Source: Sideroxydans sp. (lineage in GTDB: Bacteria; Pseudomonadota; Gammaproteobacteria; Burkholderiales; Gallionellaceae). From it: 32,921 bases of DNA. Shown piece after piece: positions 5,675 to 13,648 of this stretch. The notes below the pieces were generated by a model. It did not search any database and was not told the origin of the DNA. It worked only from the letters and a program-made list of their open reading frames with translations. Where the stretch lies: positions 1 to 32,921 of the forward strand of contig DAIDAJ010000056.1 of NCBI GenBank assembly GCA_027310665.1, in the 5' to 3' direction. Within the stretch, counting starts at the first letter, position 1, and each line of letters opens with the position of its first letter. The position numbers were made by a program, and so were the translations under genes.

Positions 5675-5983
5675 TCAAATAGATGATTGGTCATTGCGCG
5701 GAAGCTCGATTCCGCAGCGGCTGAACAGAGAACCCCACAAACTTTGCGCCTCATTCTCGGGATCGATGATGATGCGATTGTTCAGGCTGTAGTTATATTC
5801 CGCCCGCTTTTGCGGGTCGGAAAGCAGCTCGTACGCCTTCTTGATGGCATTGAACCGAACCTCGGCGCTGGAGTGGGGATTCCGGTCCGGGTGATGGCGC
5901 ATGGCAAGTGCGCGATATGCCTTCTTGATGTCTTCGGTCGATGCGGTCGGCGAGACGCCGAGAATATTGTATGGATTTTCCAA
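5675..5983 (-). CDS. Minimal J-domain (DnaJ-like) co-chaperone
   Basis: TTG at 5983 is preferred as start because a perfect AGGAGG lies five bases upstream, and the protein then begins [12 protein letters not shown] as J-domains do; the frame extends upstream to another TTG at 6016. The 102-residue product has a full J-domain: the [11 protein letters not shown] helix I region, [17 protein letters not shown] with the HPD signature at residues 31-33, and [21 protein letters not shown]. About 30 residues follow. It lacks the Gly/Phe region, zinc fingers and substrate-binding domains of DnaJ, so it is a class C protein. It should stimulate the ATPase of DnaK and direct it to a particular client. 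It is first in an operon with three unknown proteins, which are the obvious candidates for client or complex. Confidence 0.92.
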
Positions 5984-6072
5984 TGAAGCCTCCTGCAAGG
6001 CGCGCGATTTTACCAATTTACCGTCGCTTACGTGCAGTTATCCCTCATCCCTCCAATAATACCGGGGTTGAA

Positions 6073-6101
6073 TTGACAACAGAACGAACGTTCTGTATCG
6101 T
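6073..6101 (+). promoter_or_regulatory. Sigma-70 promoter of the helicase-imu operon
   Basis: A perfect -35 TTGACA (6073-6078) is followed after exactly 17 bases by TATCGT (6096-6101), a four-of-six match to the -10 box. Transcription would start near 6108, about 47 bases before the helicase start codon. The spacer is occupied entirely by the operator described next. The minus-strand J-domain operon starts from the other side of the same intergenic region. Confidence 0.75.
6079..6096. promoter_or_regulatory. LexA-type SOS operator of the Gallionellales type
   Basis: ACAGAACG-AA-CGTTCTGT has perfect 8-bp inverted arms around a 2-bp centre. Its core, 6082-6093, is GAAC-N4-GTTC with the bases GAACGAACGTTC. 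From established knowledge, LexA of Sideroxydans and Gallionella recognises exactly this motif, which resembles the Bacillus box, whereas most betaproteobacteria use CTGT-N8-ACAG. It fills the promoter spacer, so repressor binding would exclude RNA polymerase. It controls a gene set (imuA, imuB, dnaE2) that is a standard SOS target in many bacteria, which supports the call independently. Confidence 0.88.
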
Positions 6102-6154
6102 GCAATTGAGAATATTTCCCCCAAGAGCACATCGTCAAAGCGACACCCTGAACA

Positions 6155-8251
6155 ATGAACCTCGAAGTTGAAAACGCCCCCATCGCCGAGGCAGGAAGCT
6201 ATCTTTCGCGCCTCAACACCGCACAGCGCATTGCCGTAGAACACGGTACGGGGGGTGCTGCGGATGAACCGCTGCTGGTGATCGCCGGGGCAGGTTCAGG
6301 CAAGACCAATACCCTTGCACACCGTGTCGCCCATGTCATCGCGCAGGGCGCCAATCCCGGGGCCATCCTGCTGCTGACCTTCTCGCGCCGCGCGGCGGAT
6401 GAAATGGCGCGCCGCGTCGAACGCATCGTGCGCCAACTGGCGGCTGACCGTCCGCGCCTGGCCGGTGCCAAGCTCCACTGGACCGGAACCTTCCACAGCG
6501 TCGGCGCGCGCCTGTTGCGTGAATATGCCGGCAGGATAGGACTGGACCCGGGTTTCACCATCCACGACCGCGGCGATTCGGCCGACCTCATGAACCTGGT
6601 GCGGCACGAGCTGGGCGCTTCCTGCAAGGCCAAGCGCTTCCCGCTCAAGAACACCTGCCTCTCGATCTACTCGGCTACGGTTAACACCCTGTTGCCGCTG
6701 GAAGAAGTGCTGCAGCGCCGCTTTCCGTGGTGTACCGAATGGCAGGACGAACTCAAGCAACTGTTCCTCGCCTATGTGGAGGCCAAACAGAAACAGCATG
6801 TGCTCGACTACGACGACCTGCTGCTGTACTGGGCGCAGATGGTGGCCGAACCAACACTCGCGGCAGAGATCGGCGCGCGCTTCGACCATATCCTGGTGGA
6901 CGAATACCAGGACACCAACGCGCTGCAGGCCAGCATCCTGCTCGCGCTCAAGCCGCAGGGTCGCGGGCTCACGGTCGTCGGCGACGATGCGCAGTCGATC
7001 TACGCCTTCCGCGGTGCGACCGTGCGCAACATCCTCGATTTCCCCGCGCACTTCGATCCGCCCGCAAAGATTGTCACGCTGGAACAGAACTACCGCTCCA
7101 CTCAGCCCATCCTCGCAGCGGCAAACGGCGTGATCGGGCTGGCTGCAGAGCAATACAGCAAGGAGCTGTGGAGCAACAAGACCTCGGGCGAACGCCCGCA
7201 GCTCGTTACGGTGCGCGACGAGACAGACCAGGCCGGCTTCGTGGTGGAGCAGGTGCTGGAACGGCGCGAGATGGGCATCCGGCTCAAGTCGCAGGCAGTA
7301 TTGTTCCGCGCGTCGCATCACAGCGCGACACTCGAGATCGAACTCGTGCGGCGCAACATCCCATTCGTGAAATTCGGGGGATTGAAATTCCTGGAATCGG
7401 CGCACATCAAGGACGTGCTCTCTGTGCTGCGCTGGATCGAGAATCCGCGCGACCGCGTGGCCGGGTTCCGCGTGATGCAGCTGATTCCCGGTATCGGCCC
7501 CAAAACCTCGGCACAGGTGCTCGATAGCATCGCCCTGTCGCAGGATGTGATGCTGGGATTGCAGGAATCCAGAGTGCCATCCAGCGCGGCAGAAGGCTGG
7601 CAGGGCTTTCTTGAAATGGTTGACAGTCTGCATCAGCGTGCCGTGCCGTGGCCGTCCGAATTTGAAACGATCAGTACTTGGTATCAAGGCCATCTGGAGC
7701 GCCTGTATGAAGATGCACAGGTGCGCCAGATCGACATCGAACAACTGACCAAGATCGCCGCCACCTATCCCTCGCGCCAGCGCTTCCTCACCGAACTCAC
7801 GCTGGACCCACCCGATGCCACCAGCGACGAATCGGGTGCGCCGCTGCGCGACGAAGACTACCTCATCCTCTCCACCATCCATTCGGCGAAAGGGCAGGAG
7901 TGGTCATCGGTCACGCTGCTGAATGCAGTCGACGGCTGTCTGCCCTCGGACTTGGCCACCGGAAACGAGAACGAGATCGAGGAAGAACGGCGGCTGCTCT
8001 ATGTCGCCATGACCCGCGCCAAGGAGCACCTTCAGATCGTGGTGCCGCAGCGTTTCTTCGTCACGCAGCAATCGCAGTTTGGCGATCGCCATGTCTATGC
8101 CGGGCGTTCCCGTTTCATTCCGGCCAGCATCCTCGATCTGTTCGAGAAGAGAACCTGGCCGGTGGTTGAGGCTGCGCCGGTGCAGGCGGCAGGACGTTCG
8201 CGCGAAGAGGTGGTCGATCTGTTGGCGAAGATGAAGGCGATGTGGAAGTAG
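6155..8251 (+). CDS. UvrD/Rep/PcrA-like superfamily 1A DNA helicase
   Basis: The 698-residue protein carries the SF1A helicase motifs in order: a Q-motif region (LNTAQRIAVEH), Walker A GAGSGKT at residues 45-51, LTFSRRAADEM (Ia), Walker B DEYQD at 249-253, GDDAQSIYAFRGA (III), LEQNYRS (IV), ILSTIHSAKGQEWSSV (V) and RRLLYVAMTRAKEHL near 612-626 (VI). Length matches the UvrD/PcrA family, so it should be a 3'-5' ATP-dependent DNA translocase. No nuclease domain is present. It is the first gene behind an SOS operator and is followed by imuA, imuB and dnaE2 on the same strand without a visible terminator. A role in clearing forks or gaps for translesion synthesis is inference. The 528-residue antisense frame over it is a codon-bias shadow. 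Confidence 0.95.
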   Translation: MNLEVENAPIAEAGSYLSRLNTAQRIAVEHGTGGAADEPLLVIAGAGSGKTNTLAHRVAHVIAQGANPGAILLLTFSRRAADEMARRVERIVRQLAADRPRLAGAKLHWTGTFHSVGARLLREYAGRIGLDPGFTIHDRGDSADLMNLVRHELGASCKAKRFPLKNTCLSIYSATVNTLLPLEEVLQRRFPWCTEWQDELKQLFLAYVEAKQKQHVLDYDDLLLYWAQMVAEPTLAAEIGARFDHILVDEYQDTNALQASILLALKPQGRGLTVVGDDAQSIYAFRGATVRNILDFPAHFDPPAKIVTLEQNYRSTQPILAAANGVIGLAAEQYSKELWSNKTSGERPQLVTVRDETDQAGFVVEQVLERREMGIRLKSQAVLFRASHHSATLEIELVRRNIPFVKFGGLKFLESAHIKDVLSVLRWIENPRDRVAGFRVMQLIPGIGPKTSAQVLDSIALSQDVMLGLQESRVPSSAAEGWQGFLEMVDSLHQRAVPWPSEFETISTWYQGHLERLYEDAQVRQIDIEQLTKIAATYPSRQRFLTELTLDPPDATSDESGAPLRDEDYLILSTIHSAKGQEWSSVTLLNAVDGCLPSDLATGNENEIEEERRLLYVAMTRAKEHLQIVVPQRFFVTQQSQFGDRHVYAGRSRFIPASILDLFEKRTWPVVEAAPVQAAGRSREEVVDLLAKMKAMWK

Positions 8252-8256
8252 CGGCT

Positions 8257-8403
8257 ATGAATCTATTAGACCTGAGCGCCGTTCAATCCTTCGACAAGCT
8301 GGTGGAACTACTAGCCATCCGATTAGGTTGTCACAAGACGCCAACCAAGTCGTTGGTTATGTCGAAGGGTGAACTAATGCAACGCGCTGACTTAAAGAAA
8401 TGA
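8257..8403 (+). CDS. Possible 48-residue reading frame coupled to imuA, partly repeat-derived
   Basis: ATG 8257 opens a 48-codon frame that begins five bases after the helicase stop. It ends with TGA at 8401-8403, overlapping the imuA start as ATGA, which is classic translational coupling. Against a real protein, its middle (8288-8358) is a copy of a repeat also found inverted at 17016-17078, with a hairpin inside. The sequence begins MNLLDLSAVQSFDKLVELLA and ends MQRADLKK. It may serve only to carry ribosomes across the repeat to imuA. Confidence 0.35.
   Translation: MNLLDLSAVQSFDKLVELLAIRLGCHKTPTKSLVMSKGELMQRADLKK
8288..8358. repeat. Hairpin repeat between helicase and imuA
   Basis: The segment starts ccttcgacaagctggtg (8288-8304), contains tagccatccg (8312-8321), and ends in the hairpin AACCAA-GTCG-TTGGTT (8343-8358). 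The same blocks in the same order occur inverted at 17016-17078, where the hairpin is CCAGC-GACTT-GCTGG. The stem bases differ on both arms in a compensating way. The first block is a half-site of the common TTCGACAAGCT type of palindrome. Confidence 0.6.
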
Positions 8404-9098
8404 ACGCCTCTCTGGACCTGGTACTGCAGCACCCCGGCATCTGGCGCGGCGACCAGCTCGCGCAGACGGAAGAGGACACGCTGCCGACCGGCTTTGCCGA
8501 ACTGGATGAACAGTTGCCCGGCGGAGGCTGGGCGCGCGGTGCGCTGACTGAGATCCTGCTGGAGCGCGAAGGCATAGGCGAACTGCGCCTGCTGCTCCCG
8601 GCACTCGCACGTGTATCGACACAAAGCGAATGGCAAGTCTGGGTCGCTCCGCCGCACATACCTTATGCACCGGCGCTTAGCATCGCCGGGATCAATCTGA
8701 AGCAACTGCTGATAGCTAAGCCGCAATCGCCTGCCGATGCCTGGTGGACGGCCGAACAGGCGTTGCGCTCCGGTGCATGCAGTGCCGTGCTGGCCTGGCT
8801 GAGCACACCAGATGAGAAACGCATGCGCCGCCTGCAACTCGGCGCGGAAACGGGAAAAGCCTGGGGCGTACTGTTCCGCTCCGCGAGAGCCGCACAGGAA
8901 CGCTCCACTGCTTCGCTGCGCCTGCGTCTGGAAGCAACCGCGAACGGCTTGGCAGTGCACATTCTCAAACGCCGCGGCGGGCAGGTGAGCAAGCCCGTCA
9001 TGTTGAATCTGCAGCAAACCAGTGGCGCGCGCCGCACACGCACCTTTGCGCCGTCGTTATCTGTTGTGCCGTCGCTCCGCGCAGTTTCCCGAAACTGA
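8400..9098 (+). CDS. imuA: ImuA, RecA-like accessory protein of the ImuABC mutasome
   Basis: The 232-residue protein starts at ATG 8400, overlapping the preceding short frame. The N-terminal LPTGFAELDEQLPGGGWARGALTEIL is the hallmark of the ImuA/SulA-like RecA superfamily, and SADAWWTAEQALRSG-type helices follow as in the family. Length is typical. ImuA assembles with ImuB and DnaE2 to allow error-prone synthesis over damaged bases, a main source of SOS mutagenesis in bacteria without UmuDC. The C-terminal 30 residues are Arg/Ser-rich and probably disordered. It is followed after 29 bases by imuB, and the operon is under the SOS operator at 6079. Confidence 0.93.
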   Translation: MNASLDLVLQHPGIWRGDQLAQTEEDTLPTGFAELDEQLPGGGWARGALTEILLEREGIGELRLLLPALARVSTQSEWQVWVAPPHIPYAPALSIAGINLKQLLIAKPQSPADAWWTAEQALRSGACSAVLAWLSTPDEKRMRRLQLGAETGKAWGVLFRSARAAQERSTASLRLRLEATANGLAVHILKRRGGQVSKPVMLNLQQTSGARRTRTFAPSLSVVPSLRAVSRN

Positions 9099-9127: not shown

Positions 9128-10534
9128 ATGTTTTGGCTAGCCATACATTTCCCCGCGCTCCCTCTGGAAATCTACTCCAGAGGCGGCGCTGCACCCGAAC
9201 CTCTCGCCGTCATTGAAAAGCAGGGCAACCGATCGAGCGTCAAAGTGTGCAACGAGGCCGCCAGCGAACGCGGAGTGCGGGCAGGCATGCACGGTGCTGC
9301 CGCCCAAGTCTTGGTGACCAACCTCGTCGTGCGTGTGCGCGATCTGGCGGCGGAGCAGGAATCGCTGGAAGGCCTTGCCGCCTGGGCCGGAAGCTTCACA
9401 CCTGCCGTGAGCCTGCAGCCACCGGATGGTTTGCTGATAGAAATTGGCAGTTGCCTGCGCTTGCATCGCGGCTTCAAGAACCTGATCGCGCAGATGCGCA
9501 GCGGACTCAACGAAATGGGTTACGGCGCCTGCCTTGCCTGCGCACCAACGCCGTACGCTGCATGGTTGCTGGCACTGGCCGGAAAGGAAGTCGCGATCCG
9601 CGATCCGGCCAAACTCGAAAAGTTTCTTGGCGCATTGCCGGTAAAGTGGCTGGCTCAACCGCAAGATACGTTGGACAGTCTGGAAATGCTCGGTGCGCAC
9701 ACCTTGGGCGACTGCCTGCACTTCCCGCGTGCCGGCATGGCTCGCCGTTTTGGCCAGAGTCTGCTGGACGAAGTGGACCGGGCACTGGGCCGCTTGCCCG
9801 AAGCGCGCGAATTCTTCGTGCCGCCGCCCAGTTTTTCGCGCCACCTGGAATTGCCCTCGCAAGTACACGAAGCCGAAGCACTGCTGTTCGCCTCGCGCCG
9901 CCTGCTGCTGGAACTGGAGGGCTATCTCAATTTGCGCCAGGCAGGCGTGCAGCAATTCGAACTCATCTGCCGCCATGAAGACGTGCCGGATACCGTATTG
10001 AAAGTGGGCTTCGCCCAGCCGACGCGTGCCTTGGAACGCATGCTGCTCCTGCTGCGCGAAACGCTGGGCCGCACGCGACTGTGCGCTCCCGTTCACACCA
10101 TCACGCTGCACTCCAGCCTCATTCAGACCATCGAGTTATCCAACCTGGACCTGTTCCAGGACAGTACCGAGACAGGCGATGGCAACCTGCTGCTGGAGCG
10201 CCTGCGCATCCGTCTGGGAAAAGAAGGGGTGTTCAGCATCGCTCCCGCTGCAGATCACCGGCCGGAGCTGGCCTGGCGGCAATGCGGAACGGAGGATGAA
10301 AGCATACCGGCAGGCAAGCAGCAACGCCCGCTATGGCTGCTGCCCAAGCCCATGCCCTGCCACAAAGATAGGCTGGAGCTGCAGTCCGGCCCGGAGCGCA
10401 TCGAGAGCGGCTGGTGGGACGGCATGGATGTGGCGCGCGACTATTACGTGGCGCAGGGGCGTAATGGATCGCGGCTGTGGGTGTTTCGAGATCACAGCAG
10501 TGGGGGGTGGTTCGTGCATGGGCTGTTTGCCTGA
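9128..10534 (+). CDS. imuB: ImuB, catalytically inactive Y-family polymerase homologue
   Basis: The 468-residue protein begins MFWLAIHFPALPLEIYSR. True Y-family polymerases have acidic metal ligands here (D-x-x-x-F-A-x-V-E), so this copy lacks the first ligand set, as ImuB proteins do. LLIEIGSCLRLHRG takes the place of the second motif. The C-terminus has the ImuB pattern RPLWLLPKP, GPERIESGWWDGMDVARDYYVA, WVFRDHSSGGWFVHGLFA. ImuB bridges the sliding clamp, ImuA and DnaE2. I do not see an unmistakable clamp-binding motif. Ribosome site before ATG 9128 is weak, suggesting coupling to imuA. The next gene starts ten bases after its stop. Confidence 0.93.
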   Translation: MFWLAIHFPALPLEIYSRGGAAPEPLAVIEKQGNRSSVKVCNEAASERGVRAGMHGAAAQVLVTNLVVRVRDLAAEQESLEGLAAWAGSFTPAVSLQPPDGLLIEIGSCLRLHRGFKNLIAQMRSGLNEMGYGACLACAPTPYAAWLLALAGKEVAIRDPAKLEKFLGALPVKWLAQPQDTLDSLEMLGAHTLGDCLHFPRAGMARRFGQSLLDEVDRALGRLPEAREFFVPPPSFSRHLELPSQVHEAEALLFASRRLLLELEGYLNLRQAGVQQFELICRHEDVPDTVLKVGFAQPTRALERMLLLLRETLGRTRLCAPVHTITLHSSLIQTIELSNLDLFQDSTETGDGNLLLERLRIRLGKEGVFSIAPAADHRPELAWRQCGTEDESIPAGKQQRPLWLLPKPMPCHKDRLELQSGPERIESGWWDGMDVARDYYVAQGRNGSRLWVFRDHSSGGWFVHGLFA

Positions 10535-10543
10535 GGCTTTGTG

Positions 10544-13500
10544 ATGAGTGCCTACGCCGAACTCCACTGCCTCTCCAACTTCACCTTCCGGCGTGGAGCA
10601 TCCCATGCTGAAGAGCTGGTAGAGCGCGCCCACGAGCTGGGCTACACCGCACTCGCCATCACCGACGAATGCTCTCTCGCCGGTGTGGTACGTGCCCATA
10701 TGGCAGCGAAGAAATGCGGCTTGAAGCTGATCGTCGGCAGCGAGATCCGTTTTGCCGATGGCCCCAGCATCGTGTTGCTGGCAACAAACCGTACCGGTTA
10801 CGGCAACCTGTCTGAACTCATCACTCTGGGGCGTCGCAGCGCCATCAAAGGCAGTTACAGCCTTGCACTCAGCGATATCCGGAATGGCCTGCCCGGCTGC
10901 CTCGCGCTGCTGTTGCCGGACCCGCTGCCTACGCTGGAACAGGCACAACAAGTTGCAGCCGCTTTTCCCGATAGTTCATGGCTCGCAGTGGAACTGTTCC
11001 GTGCTGCCGATGATGCAGAACGCCTATCCAGATTAACCAAGCTCGGAGCCGCCGCCGGTCTGCCTCCGGTTGCAACAGGCGATGTACATATGCATGTCGC
11101 TTCGCGCCGTGCCTTGCAGGACACACTCACCGCGATTCGTGTTGGCGTACCAGTCTTCGAAGCCGGGACCGCGCTGTACCCGAACGGCGAGCGCCACCTG
11201 CGCGAACTGGCCGACCTTGCGCGAATCTATCCGCCTGAATTGCTGGCACAGACGCTGATCGTCGCCGAGCGCTGCCAATTCTCTCTCGACGAGTTGCGCT
11301 ACGAATATCCCGAAGAACTGGTGCCGAAAGATCAAACGGCCATCTCCTGGTTGCGCCAACTCACCGAAGAAGGTCTCGCACTGCGCTTCCCCGACGGCGT
11401 ACCCGACAAGGCGCGCTCGCTGGTGGAATACGAACTGGCGCTCATCGAGGAACTCAAGTACGAGCCGTACTTCCTCACCGTGCACGATATTGTGCGCTTC
11501 GCCCGCAGCCGCAACATCTTGTGTCAGGGCCGCGGCTCGGCGGCCAACTCGGCGGTGTGTTATGCGCTGCATATCACCGAAGTGAACCCGGCCTGCATGG
11601 AAATGCTGTTCGAGCGTTTCATTTCCAAAGAGCGCAACGAACCGCCGGACATCGACGTGGATTTCGAACACGAACGGCGCGAGGAGGTGATCCAGTATCT
11701 CTATGCGAAATACGGCCGGGAGCGTGCGGCACTGGCCGCCACCGTCATCACCTACCGCCCCAAGAGCGCGATGCGCGACATAGGCAAGGCGCTGGGTTTC
11801 GACCTGGAGCAGGTGGATCGACTGTCCAAATCGCTGGCGTGGTGGGACGGCCGCCAGGTGCTGCCGCAGCGCCTTGAGGAAGCCGGCTTCGATCCCGCCA
11901 ACCAGAAGGTACGCCTGCTGATGCAACTGCTCGACGAGCTGATCGGCTTCCCGCGCCACCTTTCGCAGCACGTGGGCGGCTTCGTCATTGCGCGCGGCAA
12001 ACTCTCGCAACTGGTCCCCATCGAGAATGCCGCAATGGCGGAGCGCACCATCATCCAGTGGGACAAGGACGATCTCGATGCGCTGGGGCTGCTCAAGGTA
12101 GATGTGCTGGCACTGGGCATGCTCTCTGCCATCCGCCGTGCGCTGGATGAAGTGAGCAGGTTGCGCGGCCGGACGATCACGATGGCGGATATCCCGCGCG
12201 AAGATCCCGCCGTGTACGAGATGATCGGCCACGCCGATACGGTGGGCGTGTTCCAGATCGAATCGCGTGCGCAGATGTCGATGCTGCCGCGCATGCGGCC
12301 GCGCAATTTCTACGACCTGGTGATCGAGGTGGCCATCGTGCGCCCTGGTCCGATACAGGGCGGCATGGTGCATCCCTATCTGCGCCGCCGCGAAGGTTCG
12401 GAGCCGGTGACCTATCCGAGCGAGGAGGTGAGGGATGTGCTGCAACGCACGCTGGGCGTGCCCATCTTCCAGGAGCAGGTGATGCGGCTGACCGTGGTGG
12501 CGGCCGGGTTCTCGCCGGGTGAGGCGGATGAAGTGCGGCGCTCGATGGCCGCGTGGAAGCGCAAGGGCGGACTGGAGCATCTCGAACAGCGACTGATCGA
12601 TGGCATGAGCGAGCGCGGCTACCAGCAGGAATTCGCTTTGCAGATATTCCAGCAGATCCTGGGTTTCGGCGAATACGGTTTCCCGGAATCGCATGCCGCA
12701 AGTTTTGCGTTGCTGGTCTATATCTCAGCCTGGCTCAAGTGCCATGAACCGGCGGCGTTCACCTGTGCACTACTGAACAGCCAGCCCATGGGTTTCTACG
12801 CGCCGACCCAGCTCGTGCAGGACGCGCGCCGTCATGGTGTGGAAGTACTGCCCGCGGACGTGACCGAAAGCGAGTGGGATTGCACCCTGACTACATTCCC
12901 CTCTCCCCAGCCATCGCCCATTCGGGGAGAGGGGCGAATCTCCCAACCTGCACTGCGTCTTGGCCTGCGCATGGTGAACGGCCTTTCTCTGGAAGGTGCC
13001 GCACGTCTCACAGAAGCGCGCTCGCAAAAGCCATTCGACAGCGTAGAAGACCTGGCCCGGCGAGCCGGGCTGGAAAACCGCGACCTCAAATGCCTGGCCG
13101 CTGCAGGCTCGTTGAGCACATTGGCAGGGCACCGCAGGCAAGCCTACTGGGACGTGGCAGGCATCGAGCAGCTTACGCCGCTTGCATTAACCACCGTCGA
13201 GGAAATGCAGCCGCAACTGCTGCCGCTGACCGAAGGCCAGAACCTGGTCGCCGATTACGACAGCCTGGGGCTCACTTTGGGCAGGCATCCGCTGGCACTG
13301 CTGCGCGATACGCTGCGCGCGCAACGATTGGTCACCGCTGCGGAATTGCGCACATTTCCGCACGGCAGGATCACACGCGCAGCCGGTCTGGTGATCGGCC
13401 GTCAGCGCCCCGGCACCGCGAGCGGAGTGACCTTCGTCACGCTGGAAGACGAGACTGGGCCCATCAATGTGGTGGTGTGGCGCGACCTCGCCGACAAGCA

Positions 13501-13648
13501 GCGGAGCGAACTGTTGGGATCGCGGCTGCTTGCGGTGTATGGCTTGCTGGAACGGCAGGGCGAAGTGACGCACCTCATTGCGGGGCACCTGAAGGATTTG
13601 ACGCCATTGCTCGGCGATCTGGTCACGCAGTCGCGGGACTTTCACTAA
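10544..13648 (+). CDS. dnaE2: DnaE2 (ImuC), error-prone DNA polymerase III alpha subunit
   Basis: ATG 10544 is chosen over GTG 10541 because GAGG lies seven bases before it. The 1034-residue enzyme opens with a PHP domain ([22 protein letters not shown]). The polymerase C-family core has [18 protein letters not shown] and the catalytic aspartates of PDIDVDF at 369, 371 and 373. A C-terminal OB fold ([18 protein letters not shown]) ends the protein. Length fits DnaE2 (about 1030-1080), shorter than replicative DnaE. It performs the actual translesion synthesis within the ImuABC complex. Residues of about 784-797, [13 protein letters not shown], are not family sequence but a translated REP palindrome inserted in frame. 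It is the last gene of the SOS operon and converges with degV, 24 bases away. Confidence 0.96.
12898..12934. repeat. REP hairpin inserted in frame inside dnaE2
   Basis: A perfect 11-bp stem, CCCCTCTCCCC (12898-12908) and GGGGAGAGGGG (12924-12934), encloses a 15-base loop. It is translated as [12 protein letters not shown], the well-known peptide that results when this proteobacterial palindrome falls inside a gene. It sits between conserved DnaE2 blocks (WDCTLT and [12 protein letters not shown]), so it probably occupies a surface loop. Confidence 0.88.

What the first reader, a model, noticed from the sequence alone, without database searches (positions are those of the whole stretch)
6079..6096. 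Non-canonical LexA operator fills the spacer of the helicase-imu promoter
The sequence shows TTGACA, then ACAGAACG-AA-CGTTCTGT, then TATCGT, with the palindrome exactly in the 17-bp spacer. The core GAACGAACGTTC is the motif described for Sideroxydans and Gallionella LexA. It is the only such site I noticed in the window and it stands before the expected SOS cassette. It predicts full damage control of the operon and gives the best taxonomic clue.
Basis: partly seen in the sequence, partly recalled or inferred. Interest (0 to 1): 0.75.

Follow-up and report, generated by a model that had tools for sequence, protein, structure and literature searches.

The report
Damage-switch site before a mutagenesis operon
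The short palindrome is very probably the docking site of this bacterium's unusual DNA-damage repressor (LexA), sitting inside the promoter of an operon for error-prone DNA repair; that kind of site is already known, but the same site type also sits in front of RNA-guided transposon nucleases (TnpB), which looks new.

Summary
TTGACA is 6073-6078, the perfect 18-bp palindrome 6079-6096, TATCGT 6096-6101; the spacer is 17 bp and the palindrome's last T belongs to the -10. The genome has 14 exact GAACGNNCGTTC sites: 9 read as promoter sites, 5 inside genes. The promoter sites precede lexA (two), recA, a PA0069-type radical-SAM gene, a BRO-N gene, the window's operon, an unknown gene and two tnpB genes. 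LexA here has a divergent DNA-binding domain (19.8 bits, cut-off 23.7); 30 of 30 lexA promoters fetched from the genus embed the operator in TTGACA-N17-TA. The motif is published for Sideroxydans and Gallionella (recalled; paper not held). The cassette is accessory: ImuA in 2 of 34 genomes of the genus. The less expected result lies outside the window: all 3 P0001-family tnpB genes found in the genus carry this operator, and some relatives in hosts with ordinary LexA carry CTGT-N8-ACAG there (6 of 57 promoter clusters; 0 of 2031 control windows). I propose SOS-controlled TnpB with host-matched operators. Nothing was tested experimentally.

The parts
6073..6078 (+). -35 hexamer TTGACA
   Evidence: 10 of 12 consensus matches with 17-bp spacer
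6079..6096 (.). LexA operator: 18-bp perfect palindrome ACAGAACGAACGTTCTGT
   Evidence: same core before lexA, recA and five other promoters of the genome outside the window
6082..6093 (.). core GAACGAACGTTC
6096..6101 (+). -10 hexamer TATCGT (first T shared with the operator)
6155..8251 (+). UvrD/Rep-type helicase, 698 aa, first gene of the operon
   Evidence: Pfam UvrD-helicase 215.6 bits; below the NCBIfam equivalog cut-offs of PcrA, UvrD and Rep
8257..8403 (+). small ORF of 48 aa whose TGA overlaps the imuA ATG (ATGA)
   Evidence: no family search done on it
8400..9098 (+). imuA
   Evidence: NCBIfam NF033429 ImuA equivalog 231.1 bits, cut-off 150
9128..10534 (+). imuB (Y-family polymerase-like)
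   Evidence: Pfam IMS 46.8 bits; named imuB from its position behind imuA
10541..13648 (+). DNA polymerase III alpha-type gene, probably dnaE2
   Evidence: Pfam DNA_pol3_alpha, finger, PHP; 'dnaE2' from position, cassette order recalled
5675..6016 (-). divergent J-domain gene; it may share the operator
   Evidence: Pfam DnaJ 89.8 bits
6109..6138 (-). minus-strand promoter-like match (TTGACG, 16 or 18 bp, AATATT or TATTCT; 9 of 12) reading towards the operator and the J-domain gene
   Evidence: TTGACG and TATTCT also present in G176

Best explanation
6079-6096 is the operator of this organism's own, non-canonical LexA. In undamaged cells a LexA dimer lies across the 17-bp spacer between the -35 and -10 and keeps RNA polymerase off the promoter of the helicase-imuA-imuB-dnaE2 operon. 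After DNA damage RecA filaments trigger self-cleavage of LexA, the operator empties and the translesion-synthesis operon is transcribed. Shown here: the sequence arrangement, the matching set of operators in the same genome, the divergent LexA with S24 peptidase domain, and the conserved lexA promoter in the genus. Inferred: LexA binding, steric exclusion, RecA-triggered release, damage induction.
For: 14 exact GAACGNNCGTTC sites in the genome; from the ORF layout I read 9 as promoter sites and 5 as lying inside genes; all 8 with centre AA or TT are among the 9. Genes behind them: lexA (two sites), recA (RecA 480.6 bits), PA0069-family radical SAM (491.8 bits, cut-off 360), BRO-N protein, two TnpB, one unknown, and the window operon. 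Five of the 9 sit exactly in the spacer register with promoter scores 9-10 of 12 (imu, lexA site 1, BRO-N, C109, C61 tnpB); the 5 coding sites score 0-4 in either orientation. 30 of the 32 genus lexA hits were fetched (own included): 29 of 30 carry an exact site and 30 of 30 the layout TTGACA-NCAGAAC-N4-GTTCTN-TA-N3-T. A genome of another family, G021, with a LexA 59% identical, has GAACGATCGTTC and GAACGATTGTTC at -51 and -26 of imuA. The LexA aligns with UmuD/LexA chains over the peptidase domain.
Against: No binding or expression data. recA, the radical-SAM gene, lexA site 2 and the C97 tnpB do not show the exact spacer register (fixed scores 5, 5, 5, 2), so 'spacer' is common, not universal. 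Mechanical ORFs overlap some of the 9 sites (for example C61 and C76), so 'promoter site' rests on my reading of the gene layout. The -10 TATCGT is weak (4 of 6). Of 17 imuA loci in 61 relatives, 13 show no LexA box of either type within 200 bp (these include G000 and G176, whose box is before the helicase, one start corrected). The genome is a 127-contig draft, 92.64% complete; a second LexA in the missing part is not excluded. The other S24 protein (C80) has no DNA-binding-domain hit.
Confidence: 0.9

Rival explanations
1. The palindrome is the site of another regulator (or a phage-type repressor) that happens to share GAAC/GTTC half-sites.
For: The loose form GAAC-N4-GTTC is only mildly enriched in the genome: 97 places against 70 for the reversed control pattern.
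Against: The tight form GAACGNNCGTTC marks lexA, recA and imu promoters together, and its presence before lexA is conserved in 29 of 30 fetched loci.
Confidence: 0.05
2. Chance palindrome in the spacer, with no regulatory role.
For: Near forms are common: with up to one mismatch 135 places in the genome, fewer than the 198 of the reversed control.
Against: Exact core plus outer ACAG/CTGT arms, promoter register reached at 0 of 20,000 random positions, identity in G176, recurrence before SOS genes.
Confidence: 0.01
3. The operator is real but mainly serves the divergent J-domain gene, or both directions equally, the imu genes having a further promoter (for example before imuA).
For: The J-domain gene is divergent. 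The promoter scan finds, besides the + strand promoter, two overlapping minus-strand matches (9 of 12) at 6138-6109 whose start would fall at the edge of the operator; TTGACG and TATTCT are kept in G176. 148 bp separate helicase and imuA.
Against: The + strand match is better (10 of 12) and has the operator in its spacer. No LexA box of either type lies within 200 bp of imuA in this genome (L180).
Confidence: 0.04

Closest known systems
LexA regulon of Sideroxydans lithotrophicus and Gallionella capsiferriformans (Sanchez-Alberola et al. 2015, J Bacteriol 197:2622; seen only as a reference entry in PMC8565304; content recalled)
   Same: Core GAACGAACGTTC, divergent LexA, SOS genes as targets.
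   Different: The operators found here also stand before two tnpB genes, a BRO-N gene and an unknown gene; I could not compare with the paper's list of six target genes. ImuA is rare in the genus (2 of 34 genomes).
Canonical proteobacterial SOS box CTGT-N8-ACAG
   Same: Palindromic LexA site at a sigma-70 promoter. Exact boxes stand before imuA in G016 (-17) and G007 (about -96) and before 2 of 9 helicase relatives outside the genus (L212 about -50, L216 about -57; L213 one mismatch; L069, L214, L215, L217, L218, L219 none).
   Different: No such box with up to 1 mismatch within 300 bp upstream of 6155.
imuA-imuB-dnaE2 translesion cassette
   Same: Gene order and domains.
   Different: Led by an extra UvrD/Rep-type helicase, whose relatives were found in 3 of 61 relatives (E 1e-100, own genome included) and 9 of 369 class members (E 1e-150, own included); in G005 a LexA relative is divergent to it, in G504 it follows a gene that I read as LexA-like by eye.
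IS200/IS605-type TnpB RNA-guided nucleases
   Same: Both proteins pass NCBIfam guided_TnpB (213.7 and 229.7 bits, cut-off 100).
   Different: LexA operators in the promoter. Searches of the held library for TnpB+LexA (10 papers), TnpB+SOS response (11) and IS605+LexA (8) showed, judged by titles and starts of abstracts, no paper on such control; passages were read in three of them (PMC2806898, PMC11437467, PMC11981726).
LexA repression of the Tn5 transposase gene (Kuan and Tessman 1991, title seen in the reference list of PMC2806898)
   Same: Precedent for a transposon gene under LexA.
   Different: A transposase of an unrelated element, not an RNA-guided nuclease; the paper itself was not read.

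Membership tests
LexA operator of the Sideroxydans/Gallionella type | Core GAACGAACGTTC (recalled consensus) | tested here: met
   exact at 6082-6093
LexA operator of the Sideroxydans/Gallionella type | Cognate LexA with divergent DNA-binding domain | tested here: met
   PF01726 21.9 and 19.8 bits vs cut-off 23.7; TIGR00498 101 bits vs 110.95. No direct comparison with the S. lithotrophicus LexA was made
LexA operator of the Sideroxydans/Gallionella type | Same motif in the lexA promoter (autoregulation) | tested here: met
   two sites before lexA; exact site in 29 of 30 fetched loci of the genus
LexA operator of the Sideroxydans/Gallionella type | Binding by LexA and release after damage | not testable with these tools
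   needs gel shift and damage-induction data
Canonical CTGT-N8-ACAG SOS box | CTGT-N8-ACAG near the promoter | tested here: not met
   none with up to 1 mismatch within 300 bp upstream of 6155 (L067)
imuA-imuB-dnaE2 cassette | ImuA, Y-family ImuB and a polymerase III alpha gene in one operon | tested here: met
   domains; gaps of 29 and 6 bp from the ORF list. Co-transcription not tested
SOS-controlled TnpB (proposed) | LexA site of the host's own type within the tnpB promoter | tested here: met
   3 of 3 P0001-family tnpB found in the genus. 12 of 12 examined hosts of a CTGT-type tnpB box (9 exact, 3 one-mismatch) have a PF01726 LexA above cut-off and a CTGT-N8-ACAG box before lexA (5 exact, 7 with one mismatch). 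One of them, G016, also has two relatives of the divergent LexA (50-51%), so its match is not exclusive
SOS-controlled TnpB (proposed) | The box is general in the family | tested here: not met
   exact box in 7 of 77 named loci, 6 of 57 clusters; in the order sample 2 of 6 other genomes exact, 1 with one mismatch, 3 none
RNA-guided nuclease TnpB | RuvC catalytic Asp-Glu-Asp | tested here: inconclusive
   P0001: first and third Asp aligned, but Gly stands where the solved TnpB has Glu 278 (that this Glu is catalytic is recalled), in all 7 sequences of A1; P0002 has Glu in that motif by eye

The most novel reading that the evidence does not exclude
A family of IS605-like tnpB elements has repeatedly put its RNA-guided nuclease under the host's SOS repressor: the element carries a LexA box in the tnpB promoter, and the box is of the host's own LexA type (GAACGNNCGTTC in this genus, CTGT-N8-ACAG in Polynucleobacter and other Proteobacteria). 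TnpB would be silent until DNA is damaged and RecA repair is active, which would limit self-harm and favour copying the element back by recombination.
Probability: 0.65. Interest if true: 0.72.

Novelty: new member of a known kind. Interest (0 to 1): 0.5.

Why it matters
The site itself confirms, in a further genome, a published exception to the usual SOS code and shows an accessory mutagenesis operon wired to the local LexA. The wider consequence is the tnpB promoters: when and why TnpB, a very common bacterial gene, is made is an open matter, and a LexA box in its promoter gives a direct, testable answer for one family.

Tried and rejected
Viral collection: CAGAACGWWCGTTCTG found 18 stretches; none shows the promoter register (best 6 of 12), so I drop the idea of phages borrowing this operator; the genes there were not annotated.

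Site 5169 and the one-mismatch site 17136 in the window: rejected as operators, the first because it lies inside an ORF and lacks the G..C core, the second for its mismatch and lack of a recognisable promoter by eye.

Five exact genomic sites inside ORFs (C27, C38, C75:27229, C93, C109:6102): treated as chance; fixed-register scores 0-4.

LexA boxes at imuA in relatives: of 17 loci only 2 have an exact CTGT box within 200 bp (G016 -17, G007 about -96), one has it with 1 mismatch (L187), one has the GAACG type (G021); 13 show neither (starts are approximate, and for L183 the start was wrong there: with the right one its box lies at -629). So imuA alone does not prove operator switching.

Second tnpB (C61, P0002): its start lies 181 bp behind the operator; the relative in G094 (L063) has no exact box of either type. 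Kept as tentative: the element may have landed behind a host SOS promoter.

Palindrome control at tnpB: over all 256 XXXX-N8-rc motifs, TCGG (13) exceeded and CCGG (7) equalled CTGT (7) in 74 distinct upstream stretches. These look like left-end hairpin stems (my reading, not tested), so this control is not decisive; I rest on the control windows and shuffles. Two further one-mismatch boxes far upstream (L092 -88, L104 -107) I take as chance.

Tree of tnpB: 54 of the 80 named loci plus 10 unnamed ones; the rest left out by choice (near-copies, short or cut flanks). L086 was coded 'none' because its exact box reaches beyond the stretch used; L111 is broken after 80 codons; L051, L053, L054 and L055 are among the long branches of unsure place. 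Counts of origins (5 changes for CTGT, 4 forced) are therefore rough.

Paper look-ups: the 2015 J Bacteriol paper, the Verrucomicrobia LexA paper and the 2023 TnpB census are not held.

Full report
What is there. One search shows TTGACA at 6073-6078, ACAGAACGAACGTTCTGT at 6079-6096 and TATCGT at 6096-6101. The spacer is 17 bp; the palindrome is 18 bp and shares its last T with the -10. The looser form GAAC-N4-GTTC occurs twice in the window (expected 0.41); the exact tight form once. In the fixed register the promoter scores 10 of 12; 20,000 random positions gave at most 9, once.

The operon. 6155-8251 is a UvrD/Rep-type helicase (Pfam) below the NCBIfam equivalog cut-offs. Behind it come a 48-aa ORF overlapping the next start, imuA (NF033429, 231.1 bits), an IMS-domain gene taken as imuB and a polymerase III alpha gene taken as dnaE2. 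The operon looks accessory: ImuA was found at E 1e-8 in 17 of 61 genomes and in 2 of 34 members of the genus, G000 and G176 (several of these genomes are incomplete); the helicase in 3 of 61 and 9 of 369 class members, G000 included. In G176 operator and hexamers are the same and 144 of 154 bases agree. On the minus strand two overlapping promoter-like matches (9 of 12) end beside the operator and point to the divergent J-domain gene, so shared control is possible.

The repressor. The genome has one hit to the LexA DNA-binding family, below the cut-off (21.9 bits; 19.8), in one frame with an S24 peptidase domain. The N-terminal 74 residues alone match no LexA chain of the PDB set up to E 10, though alignments of the whole protein to some LexA chains begin at residue 8. 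Its promoter has two sites, GAACGCTCGTTC inside a TTGACA-N17-TAGGAT spacer and GAACGTTCGTTC 24 bp on. A relative at E 1e-20 or better occurs in 43 of 61 genomes and in 32 of 34 of the genus (my count of the rows). Of the 30 loci fetched from the genus (own included), 29 have an exact site and 30 the spacer layout.

The regulon. Of 14 exact GAACGNNCGTTC sites, I read 9 as promoter sites: lexA twice, recA, a PA0069-family radical-SAM gene, a BRO-N protein, an unknown Ala/Lys-rich protein at a contig end, two tnpB genes and the window's operon. That PA0069 and BRO-N (DinD-like) genes belong to SOS regulons elsewhere is recalled. Five of the 9 sit in the exact spacer register (scores 9-10); recA, the radical-SAM gene, lexA site 2 and the C97 tnpB do not (5, 5, 5, 2), although in the last a TATAAT follows one base later. 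The five sites inside genes score 0-4. I conclude that 6079-6096 is a LexA operator and that the operon is under SOS control; binding and induction are inferred.

Known or new. The motif and its LexA were described in 2015 for Sideroxydans and Gallionella; I recall this, and saw only the reference entry. As an operator the site is a new member of a known kind.

Where the evidence led. One tnpB (P0001, G000:C97) starts 16 bp behind the operator core. In 150 genomes of the order, 7 have a relative at E 1e-30, G000 included. Of the six others, two have an exact CTGT-N8-ACAG at the start or in a 17-bp spacer (G003 L051, G016 L054), one a one-mismatch form (G113 L055), and three show none. In the genus 3 of 34 genomes have a copy (G000; G172, 82%; G155, 74% identical), and all 3 carry GAACGNNCGTTC in the promoter. 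Seven have an exact box starting at -29 to -4: Oceanimonas (L086), three Polynucleobacter (L111, L129, L137), a Burkholderiaceae MAG (L118) and two uncultured beta-proteobacteria (L101, L147); the other 70 have no exact box. One-mismatch boxes near the start occur in Denitrificimonas (L145) and eight Sphaerotilus copies. After clustering, 6 of 57 clusters have an exact box in -60..+25, against a shuffle mean of 0.055 (maximum 1 in 400) and 0 of 2031 control windows from the same, unclustered loci. L111 is a broken gene (80 codons).

Match to the host. Twelve genomes with a CTGT-type tnpB box were examined: those of the 7 exact named loci, of L108 and L145 (one mismatch), and G003, G016 (exact) and G113 (one mismatch). 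In all 12 the best LexA hit is above the Pfam cut-off (85.1-104 bits), and all 12 have a CTGT-N8-ACAG box upstream of lexA, 5 exact and 7 with one mismatch. Against a simple rule, G016 also has two relatives of the divergent LexA (50-51%). In the genus of the window the LexA is divergent and the tnpB box is GAACGNNCGTTC. On the tnpB tree the exact CTGT state needs 5 changes, 4 forced by well-supported branches (with the caveats told in Tried and rejected). So control seems gained more than once, or lost often.

How it may work. TnpB is an RNA-guided nuclease of insertion elements (recalled). A LexA box would hold it back until RecA filaments form, when recombination can copy the element back into a cut site. 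This is inference. P0001 has Gly where the solved TnpB has Glu 278, as have all 7 sequences aligned; I recall that rearranged catalytic sites are described for TnpB, but that paper is not held, so nuclease activity is open. A hairpin-like stretch that I take for the left end lies upstream of the operator in the three genus copies, which suggests that the element carries the operator; element ends were not mapped.

Print check. Searches TnpB+LexA, TnpB+SOS response, IS605+LexA and a broader one (15 of 32,058 listed) showed no paper on LexA control of tnpB, judged by titles and starts of abstracts. Of those papers I read passages of three; one of them cites LexA repression of the Tn5 transposase gene, a precedent for transposon genes in general. 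Most subscription papers and all bioRxiv preprints are outside that library.

Noticed in passing
L028:938-2053 minus (G000:C97); L210; L211: tnpB genes with the LexA operator GAACGNNCGTTC directly before the start; all 3 P0001-family copies found in the genus.
   Followed up: yes
L086, L101, L111, L118, L129, L137, L147, L051, L054: Relatives of the same tnpB in other Proteobacteria with an exact CTGT-N8-ACAG box over the promoter or start.
   Followed up: yes
L022:2019-3455 (G000:C61): A second tnpB (P0002) 181 bp behind a LexA operator in promoter register; may be an insertion behind a host promoter.
   Followed up: partly
L029:3-714 (G000:C109): Unknown Ala/Lys-rich protein behind a TTGACA-operator-TATCGT promoter, same layout as the window site; no Pfam, NCBIfam or PHROG match; cut off by the contig end.
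   Followed up: partly
L069 and L219: Relatives of the window's helicase stand beside LexA-like genes: divergent in G005 with GAACTCTTGTTC between them, and directly behind one, read by eye, in G504.
   Followed up: partly
window 6109-6138 minus strand: Promoter-like match pointing at the operator and the J-domain gene; possible second target of the same operator.
   Followed up: partly
L025:2158-2260: c-di-GMP-I-GGC riboswitch (59.4 bits, gathering 59) before a MotB/OmpA gene, near the radical-SAM SOS gene.
   Followed up: no
window 8257-8403: 48-aa ORF between helicase and imuA, stop overlapping the imuA start.
   Followed up: no
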